A stretch of DNA of 42,705 nt. It comes from Lineolata rhizophorae (Eukaryota > Ascomycota > Dothideomycetes > Lineolatales > Lineolataceae). The notes under the pieces were generated by a model. It made no database searches. It was not told the DNA's origin and saw only the letters and a program-made list of their open reading frames with translations. Positions within the stretch are counted from its first letter, which is position 1; each line of letters opens with the position of its first letter. This document shows positions 16,861 through 24,288 of the stretch, piece by piece. The stretch lies in NCBI GenBank assembly GCA_010093515.1, contig MU001679.1:662708-705412 (forward strand), given 5' to 3'. Both the position numbers and the translations under genes were made by a program.

Positions 16861-19206
16861 AAGGGACTTACTTGTGCACTTCTCGCGCCTCCCCGTTTGC
16901 GGCCTAGTTAGTGGGGGAATTGGAATCTTAGTTGTTCGTACCAACAGGTTCATCTTGCGCAGCCCGCCCGAGGTGTAGGTACATAGGGAAAGTCCAGCGG
17001 ATATCCGAGCGCCGCTCTCGGCGCCGGCCCGCCTCCGATCAACCGGACGCATGCCGCGCACGTACATCCCATAGGGCGGTAGGCAACCTAACCGGACTAA
17101 CGCTTGGCCTTCGCGCGCCTGCTTCTATGTACGGCCAGCGCAGACTCGCAGGTTGGAGCCGAGCTAGGGGACGTCGGGATGCAGTCGAGCGCTAACTTCT
17201 GCTGTCTGCGCCGCTGCGGGCCTACCTACAGATGGAGCGCGGGCGCGGATAGCGGGAGGAGATCTTCCTTGGGCGAGAAGGGATGCAAGGGCATTTCCGG
17301 GGATCGACTGGGTGGTATGGATATGAGCACACAGTTGCTAGACGTACTCGAGTGCAAGCGCGGTCCTCTAGGGGCAAGGGGGGAGCACGAGATGGTTGAT
17401 CAGGAGAATTTTCCTTTAGGTAAAAAAAAAAAAAAAGTCTTGCACTTTTTAAACTAGGTAGGTATTATCAGCGACGTCAAGGAGCCCGCTTTTTCTAGCG
17501 CGTCGTTCGCGGGCGCGCCAGGGTCGGCCGTTACATGGTATATGTACCTAGCGGCACATTGCGAAATAGATTGGTGGGGCACACGACTGCGAGCACGTGC
17601 AAGATACTCGAGCAGCACTCCATACTCCGTCCTTTAAGCTTTGAGAAGAGGTTGCGTCCCCGCATCGTCACAGTCGGTCAGAGAAACGTTTCGAGTGCAG
17701 GGGGAGTACGGGAAGATCGCGTGTCAATCTATGTACCCGAGAGACATGCCATCCATCACGCGTTGCGTCGAACAAGAAGTCCGTTTCATATCCGCGGTTT
17801 CCAGGGCGCAGGGCAGGGGAGCGGGCGACGGGTTCTCGGACGTGCGTGCCCGCTCCCGCACCGCGCGCACGGCACACTTCCCGGGAGCGGGTGTGTGGGC
17901 GTGTAGGCAATGAGGGTGGGAGACGAGTCAGGAGTGGGAGGGATGCCGCAATTGGCTCGATGCGTGCGCGCATCGGATCTGCAGGACGCCTTGATGATGA
18001 TGGTGTTGCTACATATTTTGGGCCTCTAAGACCCTGGAACGGGTACCTAGTGCAACGATCCCATTTGCGGCTGCGCGGGCTGGCGCTGGCGTGGCTGGTC
18101 GGCGCAGAGGCCCAACGAACAAAAAGAAGAAAAAAAAAGTTCTCGGCGGCTCTTTCTTGACGCGCTCGGGCGCGGCGGCAGCCACGCTCCCACGGCTGCG
18201 TGCGCGGCACACCGCCTTTTGCGAGCAAGCGAGGCGCGGGCCTGACCGTTGGCGCACACACACACACAGAGCGAATTTTGAAAATTTGGGCGGGGAAAGA
18301 TTTGGGGGGCGGGCCCGGAGAAGCAAGGGGGGAGCAGAACGGCCGACCTACGGCCGCGAATTGGTGCTGGACGGAGCACCACGCAGAGCAAGGCTGACGA
18401 CGGAGTCATCAAAGAGGCAACAGAGACATGAATGGGCTAGGTAGGGAGGTTGGTGGTGACTCGTCCGGCCTATGCGCTCGGTCTGGATGACGCCTGTGTG
18501 TAGCCTCGCCGCCCGGACCTTGGGACCAGCAAGCAACAGCCCCGCGGCTGCCCGGCCTCCCTACGTATGCGCATACCTGGCACACGCAATTGGACCGGGC
18601 GCTTTCCCATGCTCGCAGCTTCCGAACCCCAAGGCGGCGCGGCGGGTGGCAGGGGTCTCCACTTGGTGTCCACTTAGGCTGAAGGCCGGACGAGGGAGAG
18701 ACGAGAGCGCGCCGCCTCGTCCCATCTTTTTCTCTAGCGGAGGTCGACGGATTCTGGAGACGAGCTCGAGACAGCGGCCGCGCTCTCGTCGCCGTCGTCG
18801 CGCGCGCCGGACATGATGCACGGCATGGTGGGATGGGTAAGCATGCGCTTCTCGCGCCGATGATGTTGCGTGGTAATATGCGATCAATTTTTCTGCGCCG
18901 CGGCCAGACGTGCCGTGGTCGCGACCGGTCATGAACCCGTTGGACGGCGGGATTCTGCGGCGTGTGAGTGGTGGATGGGCGCGACACACCGCCTGAGCAT
19001 CCCCGTTTGCTAGCGCGCCGCTAATCCGCCGCTGGGCCCCGGGTCCTGCCCGCAGAATAATAATCTTCACTTGCCTCCCGCCTCGCCTTCCTCTTTCCCT
19101 CTTTTCTCTCACCATCTACCCCGCCACACAGACAACGAAGTCGCCCAAGTCACCTTTCAAGAAGCAGTTCATCGAGTACTCATCTTACCCATCTTCGTCG
19201 AGGACA

Positions 19207-19233
19207 ATGCCGCAGGCTATCGCTGAGCTGTAA
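19207..19233 (+). promoter_or_regulatory. Upstream ORF (8 codons plus stop) in the Ifh1-like leader
   Basis: ATG at 19207 with A at -3 opens a frame encoding MPQAIAEL and ends in TAA at 19231-19233. It is the only ATG I find between about 19130 and the main start at 19794. The stop lies 6 nt before the 5' arm of the 20-bp hairpin at 19240-19282, and its last codons form one arm of an outer helix. The arrangement suggests translational control. Whether the leader starts upstream of this ATG is inferred from the CT-rich stretch at 19080-19140. Confidence 0.5.
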
Positions 19234-19295
19234 ACTCCCACTGGAGGGCGCGCGCGAAGCCTTTTCGTGCGCGTCCTCCAGTCCGACCAGCTCAG
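19223..19295 (+). ncRNA. Strong two-part stem-loop in the Ifh1-like 5' leader
   Basis: Bases 19240-19259 pair with 19263-19282 without a mismatch: 20 pairs, three of them G-U, closed by a 3-nt loop. An outer helix pairs CTGAGCTG (19223-19230) with CAGCTCAG (19288-19295), 8 perfect pairs. The internal loop between them is 9 nt on the left (containing the uORF stop) and 5 nt on the right. The G-U pairs fit an RNA structure on the plus strand rather than a DNA palindrome. Pairing was worked out by hand and no energy was computed. Confidence 0.6.
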
Positions 19296-19793
19296 AGAGA
19301 TCCCAAGACTCAACGAAAGATTATTTTTTTGTTTCGATTGCCTCGAGCATATCGCTTGCAGTCGAAATCAGAGAATATATCCGATAGCCTCAACATTCGC
19401 GTGATTCACCCTGTTGAATCGGGCCGGGACAGCCATTCAGTGCTTCTCTGCCGTGTCGAATTGCAGCATTGCTCGCTTCGTTTGGTTCCCTCACCACGCG
19501 ACGACGAATCTCGGCTTGAGGCGGCAACCATAACTGGTCTCGCTGCCTTGGGTCACCCACAACCAGTCAGCAGAAACGCTAGATCGTCGGTTTGACGAAC
19601 ACACTTTGAACCGCCCCTCCTTCACCTCTCTTCATCACCCACCTCTTCTCCCTCGAGACTCTCCCTGCACTCTGAAGCTGAGAGGTCGTAATATCCCCAC
19701 CAACCACCTTTTCTTCTCCTCTTTTATACCGAGCGCCGTAACCCGAGGTTATAGGCAGTGGGCCCTAGAGCATTTCGACTCGACACGGAAGAC

Positions 19794-22107
19794 ATGGCAC
19801 GGTCTCCCTCCACCCGCTTGGCGAAAGCCTTCGATGTCGAGGTGCACCCCTTCCAGAAGCACCCGCGGACTCAGGGACATGCACGCAGCTCCTCTAAGGC
19901 CCAACTTTCCACCAAGAAGCTGAACAGCATCCTCAAGAATGGAAATAGCGAGAAGAAGCACAGCTCGGAAGAAGACTCTGCCGACGAAGGTGGTAGTGAG
20001 GACGAAGGGGATGGTGAGCACGACGAGGGGGACCTAGAAGAGGATGACGACGAGGATCCCGACCAAATTGCCCCGTCCCGCGGTGCTGGCAGGGGAGTGG
20101 GCAAGCACCCTGCCATTCGTGTGGATGCCAACGGTTCCGACGCCCTTGTCGAGGATCTCGATGGCCACGACCGTGGGGCGGGGCAACTCACTTCTTCCCC
20201 ACCTTTGCTTGGACTGTTCGACTCTCCCAGCAAGAAGAGGACCTTCAGCCACCTCGGCTCGCGGTCTTTAGCAAATACGGACGGGTCGAGCAGCGATGAC
20301 AACTCTGCTCTTCGTTCGTCTCGCCGTCCGAAGAAGATGCCTCGGGCGTCGAGCAGCAGTAGAAGGGGTATTTTGACGAATTCAGACTCCAGGGCGAACA
20401 TGGCCCAGACCAACGGCACTAATCAAGTTCCCGAACTAGCTATTGAAGAGACCACGGATGATGATTTCTACAAGGCCGTCGATCTCATCAGCGACTCTGA
20501 AGATGAAAACGATCTGGAGAAGCTCGAAGAAGCTATGATTATTGAATCGGAAGATGGCGGACTAACGCGCCGACAGCCGAAGTGCCCTCGCACCGCGGGC
20601 TTTGTTGGTACTGACGATGGTCTAACTAGCGACTTGCTCTTCGGTGACGTTGGCTCGTTTGATGAACATTTTAACCGCGGCCATTCCGCGGATGGTAGTC
20701 CGGCCGACCGTGATACCAGGCCTCGGCGCGATTCGGACAAGAGGGTCCGTTTCGACGACGACGTTGCCGTGTCTGAAACGATTGGCTCGTCCACTTCCTC
20801 CGAGGTCGACAGCGACGTATTTCCAGACCTGTTCGGCACACCCAAGTCGTCCGTCTATCAACTTGTTTTCGATACTCAGGACGTCGACCACTTTGGCAAT
20901 TCGAGCAACAGTGACAGCGAGCGGTCCTTCTGGGACTTCCAAGGTGATGCTTGGCACCATGATCTGCATCAAGTTCATACCGAGACGGAGAGCCCCGAGG
21001 GATCGAGCAGCGGTTATGAGAGTATGCGTCGCTGCATCCCTTGCTCTTCTGTGACGAGAGTGCTAACCTTTCCTAGCTGATGAGGGCGATACCACTGATG
21101 AAGAGCCCACTCAGCCCTTGACCATCATCTCCAAACCCAGCTCGGTGCTCCGTCGTCGGTCTTCCGCGGCTGGTGAAGAGTCCTGCCCGATGCCTCAGAC
21201 CCTTCGCAAACCTGCGAGGGCGTCCAAGGCACCTAAAGGCCCTGTCTTGGGCGAGTTTATCATCAACCCCAAGAAGTCCTTCGTGCTCATTGACAAGTCG
21301 GCCACGCGCATCGTCCGCTACCCGCCCATGACGCCGCGTCGCAGCAGCTCTCAAATGTGGGATGACACCACGGCGCAGAATAGCCCGGCTAGCCTCTTTC
21401 TAGCTGGTGACGAGAGCGACAGCAGCCACATGTCCAATGCGGCCTTCGGTGTCGATGTGATGCTGGGCAGCTTCTTTGCCGGCAGTCGTCCTGCGGGCGG
21501 CGACTTTGTGCTTGGCCAAGCCATCGGCCCCCCAGAGGCTTTCTTCCCGTTTTACAACTTCAACTCGGACGGCTCATTTGTGCCCGAGGATGAAGTGATG
21601 GTGGAGGACGACACAGAGGGCGAGACACTCGACCTCGACGATTTCCTCAACCTAGGTGACGCCACCACGACCAGCGCCGCTGATGCCGACAGCGCCGATG
21701 TCGATGACGCTGACGACACCGATGTGCGGGTCACGCCCGCTACGTCCATGCTGGCTCAGCCAAGCTCCACCCCGTGCTATTCGGTCGACAATTCGGTGGC
21801 CGACAATGAAATCACGCATAATCTACTCGATCACTTTGACCGCACTCCAATCGGCGCATTTCGCGCCAATCAGGACCGTTCCCGCGGGCTTGCAGGACTA
21901 CACCAGCACCCGGCTGTACGGGCGTCGGCGTCGAGGCCGCTGCGTGTCGGCCGCGATGCCGATGCCCTTATTACACCGTTGAGGAGGCGCAAGGGAAGTA
22001 GATCTGGGGTTGGTAAACCGCAAGGGAGTCCCTTGAGGCCCAAGTATGGGAAGGGCAATGTGAATATGGGACCACATATGCGTCGAATGGGTAGGGGTTC
22101 GGGTTGA
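19794..22107 (+). CDS. Acidic nuclear protein, probable Ifh1/Crf1-type transcription regulator
   Basis: Exons are 19794-21021 and 21077-22107. The 55-nt intron has donor GTATGC, branch GCTAACC and acceptor CCTAG, and the product is 752 aa. The sequence is largely disordered and very acidic, with runs such as SEEDSADEGGSEDEGDG, Ser-rich patches and a basic RRPKKMPRASSSSRRG stretch. The centre carries FYKAVDLISDSED, DKRVRFDDD and DVFPDLF, then SGYESTDEGDTTDEEP formed across the splice junction, followed by a LRRRSS/GEFIINPKKSFVLIDK block. This order (VRFD, DxFPDLF, GYES-DEGxTTDEE) is what I recall of filamentous-fungal Ifh1/Crf1 proteins, which partner the forkhead factor Fhl1 at ribosomal-protein gene promoters. 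That family call is from memory and moderate. The start ATG at 19794 is chosen because an earlier GTG of the frame is not needed. The long leader carries a uORF and hairpin. Confidence 0.6.
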
Positions 22108-23119: not shown

Positions 23120-23655
23120 TATTCTTCCTCCCATGCCGGCACGCTTCGGCCGAAGGGGGGGTGTCCGCGGCTAATCTTCGGCGAATCGCCCGATTTTCGC
23201 GACCCGCGCTAACTAAAGCTTACTAATGTACATGGCCTCAGATTTGAGGCATTCCAATGTTGCATCTGACTCCCACTTGGGTTGGAATCTTGCTCTGAGC
23301 ACCACCAGCATGGTCAACTCCTCCCTGACTACAGTCCTCGGCCCGCCCCATGGCGATGTGGTAGCGTTCTTGCCAACGGCCCGCTACCAGCGCTCCCCTG
23401 TGCAGATTGTATGCTACCTCTATAATGCACTTTCGACGTGCACGTGACATTGGAAGTGCTGTATGACTCTGCATTTCTTACGTAAGGTGAGCTGCGCTTG
23501 CCGCTTCCGCACGCACAATTTTTGTTGCCTCACATTTACCTCATCCTTGCCTTGGTAATCTGGTTTCGGTGTGCGTCAATTTTAACCGCAGCCGCATTTT
23601 CTATAGAGTCAGCGTGGTAAGATCTATTTCACATTTTCAAGCGGGCGCAGAAAAG

Positions 23656-23779
23656 AAAAAGAGTGAGAGAGCGGAGCGTCGTGAGGCAGGCTCGAACCCG
23701 GCGCGCGGCAGGCGAGCTCGCCCCGCTCTTGGCACCTACCCACTCGGACAAAGCGCTGCGCCCACTCGGCCATTTCACC
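23656..23779 (-). ncRNA. Degenerate tRNA-like Pol III element
   Basis: On the minus strand, TGGCCGAGTGG (23772-23762) is a perfect tRNA A box and GGTTCGAGCC (23698-23689) fits the B-box consensus GWTCRANNC. They are separated by 63 bp, as in a type II (Ser/Leu-like) or intron-containing tRNA gene. A five-T Pol III terminator follows (23660-23656). The expected cloverleaf fails: the 5' GGTGAAA has no partner after the T loop, the T stem has two mismatches, and the anticodon stem is poor. A second A-box-like copy (TGTCCGAGTGGG) lies inside. It is therefore a pseudo-tRNA, a tRNA-derived element, or a TFIIIC-binding site rather than a working tRNA gene. It points away from BRF1, whose ATG is about 510 bp off. 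Confidence 0.45.
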
Positions 23780-24288
23780 AACCTCCTTACAATTTTCTTT
23801 CTGACTCCGCCGCCCCGGGCTTCGACACACGCGGCTCAGTCTGCCAGCCCCTCCTACCGCAACCACCAACCGCATCGACTATCTAAAGCTTCCGCTTGCG
23901 GTTAGACGGCTTTTGAAAGGGCTGCGCGCTGCGTTGCGGCGACGTTTTGGACGCCTCGCAGAAGAGGTCCGTTGCGTTGTGGGGAGGGGTGAATTGGGGT
24001 GGTTCTCTGCGATTTAGTCTTTTTTTTCATTTGATCATTGCTGGCAGAAGCACATTTCTTACTGTCAAGACTCTTTTCCTTAAAGAGCTCTCTTGCCACA
24101 AGGGGTTATCCTACTTCCTTTGTTTACAACACCATTTTGCCTTCACCGTCAGCCCAGCCGTCCCGAGTCCTCGGAACGACCGGACGCCACGTAAACACCG
24201 TGTGCCTTCCACCTAAGCCATACCTAAGCCCCGACCCATTACTTCCATCATACATCCACCAATTCCTCCAATCCCGAACCAGTTCACC

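What the first reader, a model, noticed from the sequence alone, without database searches (positions are those of the whole stretch)
19207..19295. uORF coupled to a 20-bp hairpin in the leader of the Ifh1-like gene
Seen: an 8-codon uORF (MPQAIAEL, A at -3) ends at 19233. Six bases later begins a stem of 20 uninterrupted pairs (19240-19259 with 19263-19282, three G-U, 3-nt loop). An outer helix of 8 perfect pairs (19223-19230 with 19288-19295) uses the last codons of the uORF as one arm. No other ATG occurs between the uORF and the main ATG 560 bases on. A ribosome terminating on the uORF would open the outer helix and abut the inner stem, so translation of the uORF and folding of the leader must interact. 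If the downstream protein is an Ifh1/Crf1-type activator of ribosomal-protein genes, this would be a translational sensor on a master regulator of ribosome production. The structure is seen; the function is inference.
Basis: partly seen in the sequence, partly recalled or inferred. Interest (0 to 1): 0.75.

Follow-up and report, generated by a model that had tools for sequence, protein, structure and literature searches.

The report
Fungal uORF-hairpin leader, amd-motif member
The leader of a fungal gene carries an eight-codon mini-gene wound into a strong RNA hairpin, and it matches a published but unexplained fungal RNA element (the amd motif) that probably controls how much protein is made from the gene.

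Summary
The 8-codon uORF (MPQAIAEL, 19207-19233), the 20-pair stem and the 8-pair outer helix are at the stated coordinates. The stem is the longest hairpin with at most 30% G-U in 243 kb of this genome, both strands (20 bp; next 15). On the gene's strand only, 19208-19599 holds no ATG (4.9 expected, P 0.001), as in a scanned leader.

It is not new in kind. It fits the text description of the amd motif (Li & Breaker 2017, PMC5640933): a two-stem junction whose P1 and internal loop carry a 6- or 8-codon uORF ending A(V/F)(A/V)EL. Here the uORF has 8 codons and ends AIAEL. No other ORF of that (widened) 8-codon pattern was found in the genome.

The mechanism is inferred: the stems hold scanning subunits on the uAUG, uORF translation opens P1, and main-ORF output falls. 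Shunting and a promoter switch stay open.

The Ifh1 label is unproven: Pfam CRF1 is not matched, and no amidase was found in the window. No relatives were reachable, so covariation was not tested. The lead: an orphan motif before a non-amidase, possibly Ifh1-like protein.

The parts
19207..19233 (+). uORF MPQAIAEL, 8 codons, ACA before ATG, stop TAA
   Evidence: only match in the genome to ATG-X2-A-[VIFLM]-[AV]-E-L-TRR
19223..19230 (+). P1 (outer helix), 5' arm = last two bases of codon 6 plus codons 7-8 of the uORF
   Evidence: (pair probability 0.98-1.0)
19231..19239 (+). internal loop, 5' side, holds the uORF stop codon
19240..19259 (+). P2 (inner stem), 5' arm
19260..19262 (+). apical loop (5 nt, 19259-19263, in the favoured fold)
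19263..19282 (+). P2, 3' arm
19283..19287 (+). internal loop, 3' side
19288..19295 (+). P1, 3' arm
19060..19119 (+). pyrimidine-rich tract, candidate distal promoter/TSS region upstream of the uORF
   Evidence: 82-88% C+T in the 40-nt windows starting at 19060 and 19080; link of such tracts to fungal TSS is recalled
19234..19793 (+). 560-nt ATG-free leader between uORF and main ATG
   Evidence: longest ATG-free run upstream of the 33 ORFs of at least 300 aa kept
19600..19740 (+). second pyrimidine-rich stretch, candidate proximal TSS region downstream of the element
   Evidence: 72-80% C+T in 40-nt windows at 19600-19640, 75% at 19700
19794..21021 (+). main ORF, exon 1 (inferred gene model)
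21022..21076 (+). 55-nt intron, GTATGC..GCTAAC..TAG
   Evidence: inferred from splice signals
21077..22107 (+). main ORF, exon 2; the joined exons give a 752-aa acidic, low-complexity protein with a DTTDEE .. GEFIINPKKSFVLIDK .. VRYPP stretch
   Evidence: no Pfam match

Best explanation
The element is a member of the fungal amd motif: a 5'-leader RNA of two stems (P1 8 bp, P2 19-20 bp) with a short uORF threaded through P1 into the internal loop. Most likely it is a translational repressor with a ribosome-operated switch. (1) Scanning subunits meet a uAUG in strong context and pause there, because P1 starts 16 nt past its A and P2 behind it is very stable. (2) They translate MPQAIAEL, which opens P1, and stop in the internal loop against P2. 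(3) Most ribosomes are lost there, so little reaches the main ATG; the rest resume scanning across a 560-nt ATG-free leader, long enough to regain initiator tRNA. (4) When uORF initiation, helicase (Ded1-type) activity or termination changes, P1 closes or P2 opens and output of the main protein changes. Shown here: anatomy, rarity, ATG depletion downstream of the uORF, no second copy found, agreement with the published motif text. Inferred: transcription across the element, direction of the effect, all regulation.
For: Anatomy and fold. Longest hairpin with at most 30% G-U in 243 kb. Sense strand 19208-19793: 0 ATG, 5.1 expected, P 0.004; antisense 7 against 8.8; the lack lies in 19208-19599 (0 against 4.9, P 0.001). 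Longest ATG-free run before any of the 33 ORFs kept (584 nt, next 350). Published motif text fits: two-stem junction, uORF from upstream of P1 into the internal loop, 8 codons in 9 of 23 examples, last five residues A(V/F)(A/V)EL (PMC5640933, section 9); here AIAEL. Of about 1,660 ATG ORFs of 5-15 codons in the sample, 3 distinct ones match four of those five positions and none all five; this is one of the 3. In the whole genome one match to ATG-X2-A-[VIFLM]-[AV]-E-L-TRR, this one; 0 in the reversed control. Most hairpins downstream of translated uAUGs in Arabidopsis begin within 25 nt and favour that uAUG (PMC10499604, abstract and passages). In N. crassa a leader hairpin near two uORFs (SDC motif) represses its gene (PMC5640933, passages).
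Against: Residue 5 is I, outside the printed V/F. The published alignment was not read (supplement look-ups capped at 0), so conserved loop letters were not compared. P2 (-37 kcal/mol) is more stable than the range given as optimal for uAUG hairpins (-19.9 to -34.1). No transcript, footprint or reporter data. ATG counts upstream of the uORF are uninformative (0 against 1.0 expected, P 0.31), so they do not show that transcription starts upstream of it. A second pyrimidine-rich stretch at 19600-19740 could give transcripts without the element. By GC-corrected window energy it is only 14th of 24,102.
Confidence: 0.6

Rival explanations
1. Alternative transcription start: the uORF-hairpin lies only on a long, poorly translated isoform, and the protein is made from a short isoform starting in or after the pyrimidine-rich stretch at 19600-19740. 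Switching promoters would be the regulation, as discussed for the 5'-truncated hacA mRNA of filamentous fungi.
For: Two pyrimidine-rich stretches, 19060-19119 and 19600-19740. [quoted passage not shown] niger (PMC3472299; PMC8071499).
Against: 19208-19599 is depleted of sense ATGs (0 against 4.9 expected, P 0.001), which a stretch that is only promoter need not be. The hacA parallel is weakened by the same passage of PMC3472299, which says truncation is not required for induction in A. niger. The rival also needs the element to act as a block in the long isoform, so it does not exclude the best explanation.
Confidence: 0.18
2. Short-ORF-dependent ribosome shunt: ribosomes terminate on the uORF 6 nt before a stem they cannot melt, jump it, land downstream and scan on to the main ATG. 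The element would then permit rather than repress expression.
For: The geometry is that of viral shunt elements: CaMV stop 6 nt before the stem, RTBV and RTSV 7 and 8 nt with short ORFs of 7 and 6 codons (passages of PMC2241666, PMC3291615, PMC5902531). A 2-15-codon ORF ends 5-10 nt upstream of 2.4% of positions in the sample.
Against: The landing region is not open: mean unpaired probability 0.30 (19283-19300) and 0.36 (19301-19345) against 0.40-0.44 for the whole leader; in local folding 0.47 (19283-19300) and 0.40 (19296-19345) against 0.41-0.50 further downstream. P1 overlaps the uORF, unlike the viral layout described. The jumped stretch holds no AUG, so a shunt is not needed to avoid any. 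The geometry may simply be the amd layout.
Confidence: 0.1
3. The stretch is intronic and is removed: a 5' splice site GTAAAC overlaps the uORF stop (19230), with CAG at 19293-19295.
For: GTAAAC and CTCAG frame a 66-nt stretch.
Against: No CTRAY motif from 19022 to 19900; that fungal introns need such a branch site and that GTAAAC is a weak 5' site are recalled. A degenerate CCGAC lies at 19283. The authors' pipeline took intergenic and intron sequence alike, so it does not decide this.
Confidence: 0.05
4. Dicer substrate (milRNA-like precursor) or a DNA palindrome without a role in translation.
For: About 73-nt hairpin of 27-28 pairs with one internal loop. Rfam gives only chance-level microRNA matches, at 19319-19379, beside the element and not in it.
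Against: All three departures from Watson-Crick pairing in P2 are G-U on the sense strand, which fits RNA better than DNA (one is the weak closing pair); the uORF fit and ATG depletion stay unexplained; the gathering-level Rfam scan is empty.
Confidence: 0.03
5. Chance hairpin without function.
For: 1 of 60 resampled sets held a stem of 20 or more; by GC-corrected window energy it ranks 14th of 24,102. No relatives could be compared.
Against: Joint occurrence of hairpin, outer helix, uORF spacing, ATG depletion and the published peptide pattern.
Confidence: 0.03

Closest known systems
amd motif (Li & Breaker 2017, PMC5640933; 23 examples in 20 fungal species)
   Same: Two-stem junction; uORF starts upstream of P1, runs through its 5' arm and ends in the internal loop; 8 codons (as 9 of 23); C-terminus A-x-A-E-L; lies upstream of a gene of unknown function.
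   Different: Residue 5 is I rather than V/F. The downstream gene here matches no Pfam family and no amidase was found in the window, whereas in more than nine species it was annotated amidase. Internal-loop letters could not be compared (alignment files not read).
uAUG-ds elements (Xiang et al. 2023, PMC10499604; abstract and passages seen)
   Same: Double-stranded RNA starting within 25 nt of a uAUG (here 16 nt past the A); about 20 bp.
   Different: P2 (-37 kcal/mol) and the whole (-48.9 to -54.6) exceed the reported optimum; function shown in Arabidopsis and human cells, not fungi; here the uORF itself is part of the helix.
Short-ORF-dependent ribosome shunt of plant pararetroviruses and RTSV (PMC2241666, PMC3291615, PMC5902531; passages seen)
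   Same: Short ORF ending 6 nt before a stable stem in a long leader.
   Different: Landing site not open; outer helix overlaps the ORF; cellular gene; no further AUGs to bypass.
SDC motif of N. crassa SAM decarboxylase (PMC5640933; passages seen)
   Same: Leader hairpin with two uORFs in the same leader of a filamentous fungus; shown to repress a reporter.
   Different: 11-bp hairpin; the leader is alternatively spliced, one form without the uORFs; overlap of uORF and stem as here is not described in the passages seen.
hacA leader of Aspergillus niger (passages in PMC8071499 and PMC3472299; the original paper not read)
   Same: Regulator gene whose 5'UTR attenuates translation by base pairing with an inverted repeat; shorter transcripts exist.
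   Different: No uORF-in-stem layout in what I saw; response to ER stress.

Membership tests
amd motif | Elongated two-stem junction P1 - internal loop - P2 | tested here: met
   Predicted P1 8 bp, internal loop 9/5 nt (RNAfold adds two pairs inside it), P2 19-20 bp; pair probabilities 0.92-1.0 except the closing G-U, 0.42
amd motif | uORF of 6 or 8 codons beginning upstream of P1 and extending into the internal loop | tested here: met
   8 codons, 19207-19233; P1 5' arm 19223-19230; stop in the loop
amd motif | Last five residues A(V/F)(A/V)EL | tested here: inconclusive
   AIAEL: 4 of 5 positions within the printed choices, I in place of V/F. Only match in the genome to the 8-codon pattern; I widened position 5 to V/I/F/L/M after seeing the I. 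The 6-codon form has 0 matches
amd motif | Conserved letters in the internal loop and adjoining P1/P2 | not testable with these tools
   Alignment is in supplementary files (look-ups capped at 0); no Rfam match in the element
amd motif | Upstream of a protein gene of unknown function, in more than nine species annotated amidase | tested here: inconclusive
   Upstream of a gene with no Pfam match; none of the 25 amidase matches listed for the genome lies in the window. Orthology with N. crassa NCU05182 not testable here
Ifh1/CRF1 family | Pfam CRF1 (PF10380) domain | tested here: not met
   No match for the spliced 752-aa protein with the limit set at E 10, although HMMER's filters drop most matches above about 0.1; none in the genome at E 0.001, with controls also silent, so absence is not shown
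Ifh1/CRF1 family | Partner with FHA and forkhead domains (Fhl1) in the same genome | tested here: met
   FHA and forkhead in one reading frame at C16:339175-340038 and at C8:542958-544334 (frame check 78); supports possibility only
uAUG-ds element | Double-stranded structure beginning within 25 nt of a uAUG | tested here: met
   P1 starts 16 nt after the A of the uATG
uAUG-ds element | Reported optimum 12-20 bp and -19.9 to -34.1 kcal/mol (an optimum, not a strict limit) | tested here: not met
   20 bp fits; P2 energy -37.0 and whole -48.9 to -54.6 are beyond the range
uAUG-ds element | uAUG use falls when the structure is opened | not testable with these tools
   needs reporters
Short-ORF-dependent shunt | Short ORF stop 6-8 nt before the base of a stable stem | tested here: met
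   6 nt to P2; P1, however, lies further out
Short-ORF-dependent shunt | Unstructured UA-rich landing site | tested here: not met
   19283-19345 no more open than the rest of the leader, although a T-rich run lies at 19321-19334
Short-ORF-dependent shunt | Downstream translation depends on uORF start and stop and on the basal helix | not testable with these tools
   needs reporters

The most novel reading that the evidence does not exclude
The orphan amd motif of filamentous fungi is the translational gate of their Ifh1-type coactivator of ribosomal-protein genes, mis-annotated as amidase. Ribosomes reading the 8-codon uORF set the leader's fold, so the cell's translation capacity feeds back on ribosome production. 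The failure to obtain a homokaryotic deletion of the N. crassa amd-motif gene NCU05182 would match the lethality of IFH1 loss in yeast.
Probability: 0.25. Interest if true: 0.75.

Novelty: new member of a known kind. Interest (0 to 1): 0.48.

Why it matters
The amd motif was published in 2017 without a function: conserved, tied to a gene that could not be deleted to homokaryosis in Neurospora, and named after an enzyme annotation. This member places it before an acidic, low-complexity protein with an Ifh1-like stretch (a recalled likeness) and no amidase match. If that holds in the other species, the motif's glutamate/amidase hypothesis falls away and a direct test opens: does translation itself tune a regulator of ribosome genes through a uORF-operated RNA fold? 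It also separates peptide from fold, because the conserved A-E-L codons are themselves the 5' arm of P1.

Tried and rejected
Relatives. The window's genome is held without relatives and gives no file. A scan of prokaryote genome contigs with the protein and of viral contigs with 195 residues of its second exon found none. A pattern made from the stop/internal-loop/P1 letters gave 0 in genome contigs; a slightly looser one gave 2 in viral contigs. The two have identical letters, fold at -11.8 kcal/mol without a long stem, and were set aside as chance. Covariation was therefore not tested here.

More copies in the genome. DNA search: only itself (the tool warns that no match does not show rarity). 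The P1/uORF pattern gave 3 matches against 8 in the reversed control; the two others fold at -18.3 and -7.9 kcal/mol against -44.7 for this one and lack its long stem.

Rfam: nothing in the window at gathering scores; in 19100-19400 two chance-level microRNA matches, at 19319-19379 and 19322-19377.

Intron reading rejected for want of a branch site. GC-corrected window energies were weakly informative. PDB sequence search of the second exon gave one irrelevant match at E 1.8. Of the ten window ORFs scanned, four had Pfam matches at E 0.001; of the ten proteins, none at E 10. A search of the genome with a 205-residue part of the protein found only itself.

Papers. The only paper of the library that holds NCU05182 is PMC5640933. 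For 'amd motif' with uORF or fungi, 437 papers hold two of the terms; of the 20 listed only PMC5640933 shows 'amd motif'. Ifh1 with uORF: 6 papers, none on a fungal IFH1 leader by title and abstract start. Ifh1, Crf1, filamentous fungi, ribosomal protein genes: 20 of 25 listed, none with 'filamentous fungi'. Ifh1 with Neurospora: three listed papers hold both words, not opened. PMC8216456 (17 fungal RNA structures) does not contain 'amd', 'uORF' or 'IFH1' in its main text; PMC7889888 and PMC2834713 had nothing on filamentous-fungal orthologues under the terms tried.

Full report
What was checked. RNAfold of 19201-19310 gives both helices as the minimum-energy fold (-54.6 kcal/mol; z -5.5; 0 of 200 dinucleotide shuffles as good). 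In leaders modelled from four assumed starts (19060, 19125, 19141, 19180) to 60 nt beyond the main ATG, the 20 inner pairs have probabilities 0.92-1.0 except the closing G-U (0.42), and the 8 outer pairs 0.98-1.0.

Is it more than chance? Of 139 hairpins with at least 12 uninterrupted pairs and loops of 3-12 nt, 21 have at most 30% G-U; among these it ranks first in length (20, next 15) and energy (-36.9, next -25.6 kcal/mol). The 118 others, with more G-U, were dropped from the ranking; the 25 longest rows printed (25-35 bp) are (GT)n-type repeats of one locus. In 60 sets resampled in 500-nt blocks, four held a stem of 18 or more, one a stem of 20 or more, and three a stem at -35 kcal/mol or below. 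A result against it: by GC-corrected folding energy of 100-nt windows it is 14th of 24,102. The outer helix length is matched by 4, 14 and 9 of 2000 flank shuffles for flanks of 20, 25 and 30 nt counting Watson-Crick pairs, and by 24, 38 and 41 with G-U allowed. A 2-15-codon ATG ORF ends 5-10 nt upstream of 2.4% of positions in the sample.

Is it in a leader? Between 19208 and 19793 the sense strand has 0 ATG where shuffles give 5.1 (P 0.004); ATG read on the antisense strand occurs 7 times against 8.8 expected. The lack sits in 19208-19599 (0 against 4.9, P 0.001); 19600-19793 (0 against 0.6) and the stretch before the uORF, 18976-19206 (0 against 1.0, P 0.31), are uninformative. Further upstream, 18400-18975, sense ATGs are in excess (15 against 9.4). 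The ATG-free run before the main ATG, 584 nt, is the longest before the 33 ORFs of at least 300 aa that one search kept (next 350; median 61); ORFs overlapped by a longer one or near a stretch's start were dropped, and some will be internal exons. This strand-specific lack fits a scanned leader reaching up to about the uORF; it does not by itself place the start upstream of it. A pyrimidine-rich tract (82-88% C+T) lies at 19060-19119, another stretch at 19600-19740. That fungal start sites tend to follow such tracts is recalled, so two promoters remain possible. No CTRAY motif exists from 19022 to 19900, so a canonical intron ending in that stretch is unlikely; GTAAAC at 19230 is noted as a weak 5' site.

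What it is. A full-text search for uORF, hairpin and filamentous fungi led to Li & Breaker 2017 (PMC5640933; I saw abstract, outline, sections 5, 9 and 22, and passages; not the figures or supplements). Its amd motif is an elongated two-stem junction, 23 examples in 20 fungal species. The letters upstream of P1 and into the internal loop encode a uORF of eight (9 of 23) or six (14 of 23) codons ending A(V/F)(A/V)EL. The window element has this layout: P1 19223-19230/19288-19295, internal loop with the stop codon, P2, and an 8-codon uORF ending AIAEL. Among about 1,660 ATG ORFs of 5-15 codons in the sample, three distinct ones match four of the five positions, this one included, and none all five (the listing shows the window ORF twice because a copy, L028, was in the set). 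Over the whole 31-Mb genome, ATG-X2-A-[VIFLM]-[AV]-E-L-TRR is matched once, here, with 0 in the reversed control; position 5 had been widened after seeing the isoleucine. The 6-codon form has no match. I therefore file it as an amd-motif member with high confidence, short of comparing internal-loop letters. The Rfam 15 scan is silent on it.

A point that this member makes clear: codons 6-8 (GCT GAG CTG), less their first base, are the 5' arm of P1, so conservation of A-E-L may reflect pairing and not peptide. Residues 4 and 5 lie outside P1; position 5 being V, F or (here) I, whose codons share a middle T, hints that a hydrophobic residue or that base is also kept. This is inference from one new member and the published text.

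The downstream gene. A 55-nt intron (GTATGC..GCTAAC..TAG) joins two exons into a 752-aa protein rich in acidic and low-complexity stretches. It has no Pfam match; Pfam CRF1 is not found in the genome (whose controls are also silent, so that absence is not shown). Supporting only the possibility: two reading frames carry both FHA and forkhead domains (C16 and C8), as Fhl1 does. Homologues of BRF1, TRM1, Bud13 and a ferritin-like protein lie in the window. None of the 25 amidase matches listed for the genome falls in the window, so the motif's 'amidase' label finds no support at this locus. Li & Breaker report that a deletion of NCU05182, the N. crassa gene with the motif, survived only as a heterokaryon; loss of IFH1 is lethal in yeast unless FHL1 is also lost (PMC13054639, abstract and passages). 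Whether NCU05182 is the orthologue of this gene I could not test; the only held paper that names it is PMC5640933.

How it most likely works. The uATG has A at -3. P1 starts 16 nt past its A; in Arabidopsis most double-stranded structures that favour a uAUG begin within 25 nt of it, with supporting human-cell reporters (PMC10499604, abstract and passages). P2 behind it is more stable than their optimum. So scanning subunits should pause and initiate on the uORF. Its translation opens P1 and ends facing P2; a fraction resumes scanning over a long ATG-free leader. The simplest effect is repression, tunable by helicase activity or initiation rate. The N. crassa SDC hairpin, in a leader with two uORFs, represses its gene. 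All of this is inferred; nothing here measures expression.

Rivals. The shunt reading is attractive because the 6-nt stop-to-stem distance equals that of CaMV and is close to the 7-8 nt of RTBV and RTSV (passages), but the landing region is no more open than the rest of the leader, and P1 overlaps the uORF. A promoter switch leaving the element out of the productive mRNA is as simple and could coexist; the hacA parallel rests on passages only, one of which says truncation is not required for induction, and the ATG lack in 19208-19599 speaks against a purely proximal start. Intron, small-RNA precursor and chance are unlikely for the reasons given with each.

Verdict. Real, rare in its genome, and already described as a kind: a new member of the amd motif. 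What is new is the gene context, which makes an orphan motif testable. Interest 0.48; if the Ifh1 link is borne out, 0.75.

Noticed in passing
18837-19055: A strong 5' splice site GTAAGC (18837), a CTAATC branch-like site (19021) and CCCGCAG (ending 19055) could make a 219-nt leader intron upstream of the element; joined, the frame from ATG 18813 would run to a stop at 19226, overlapping the amd uORF (read).
   Followed up: no
about 23640-23790, - strand: A stretch with tRNA-like pieces (TGGCCGAGTGGG .. GGGTTCGAGCC) that neither ARAGORN nor Rfam calls as a tRNA; possibly a decayed tRNA gene before the BRF1-like gene.
   Followed up: partly
Probably spurious.
   Followed up: partly
24152-24185, - strand: Second-longest hairpin with at most 30% G-U in the sample (15 bp, four G-U), antisense to the leader of the BRF1-like gene.
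   Followed up: no
19314-19336 and 19319-19379: Just downstream of the element a T-rich run is flanked by CGAAA/TTTCG, and the region gives chance-level microRNA-precursor matches; local folding leaves it largely paired (unpaired 0.29 over 19313-19342).
   Followed up: no
G000 C8:542958-544334 and C16:339175-340038: Two reading frames in the same genome carry both FHA and forkhead domains, the domain pair of Fhl1-type proteins.
   Followed up: partly
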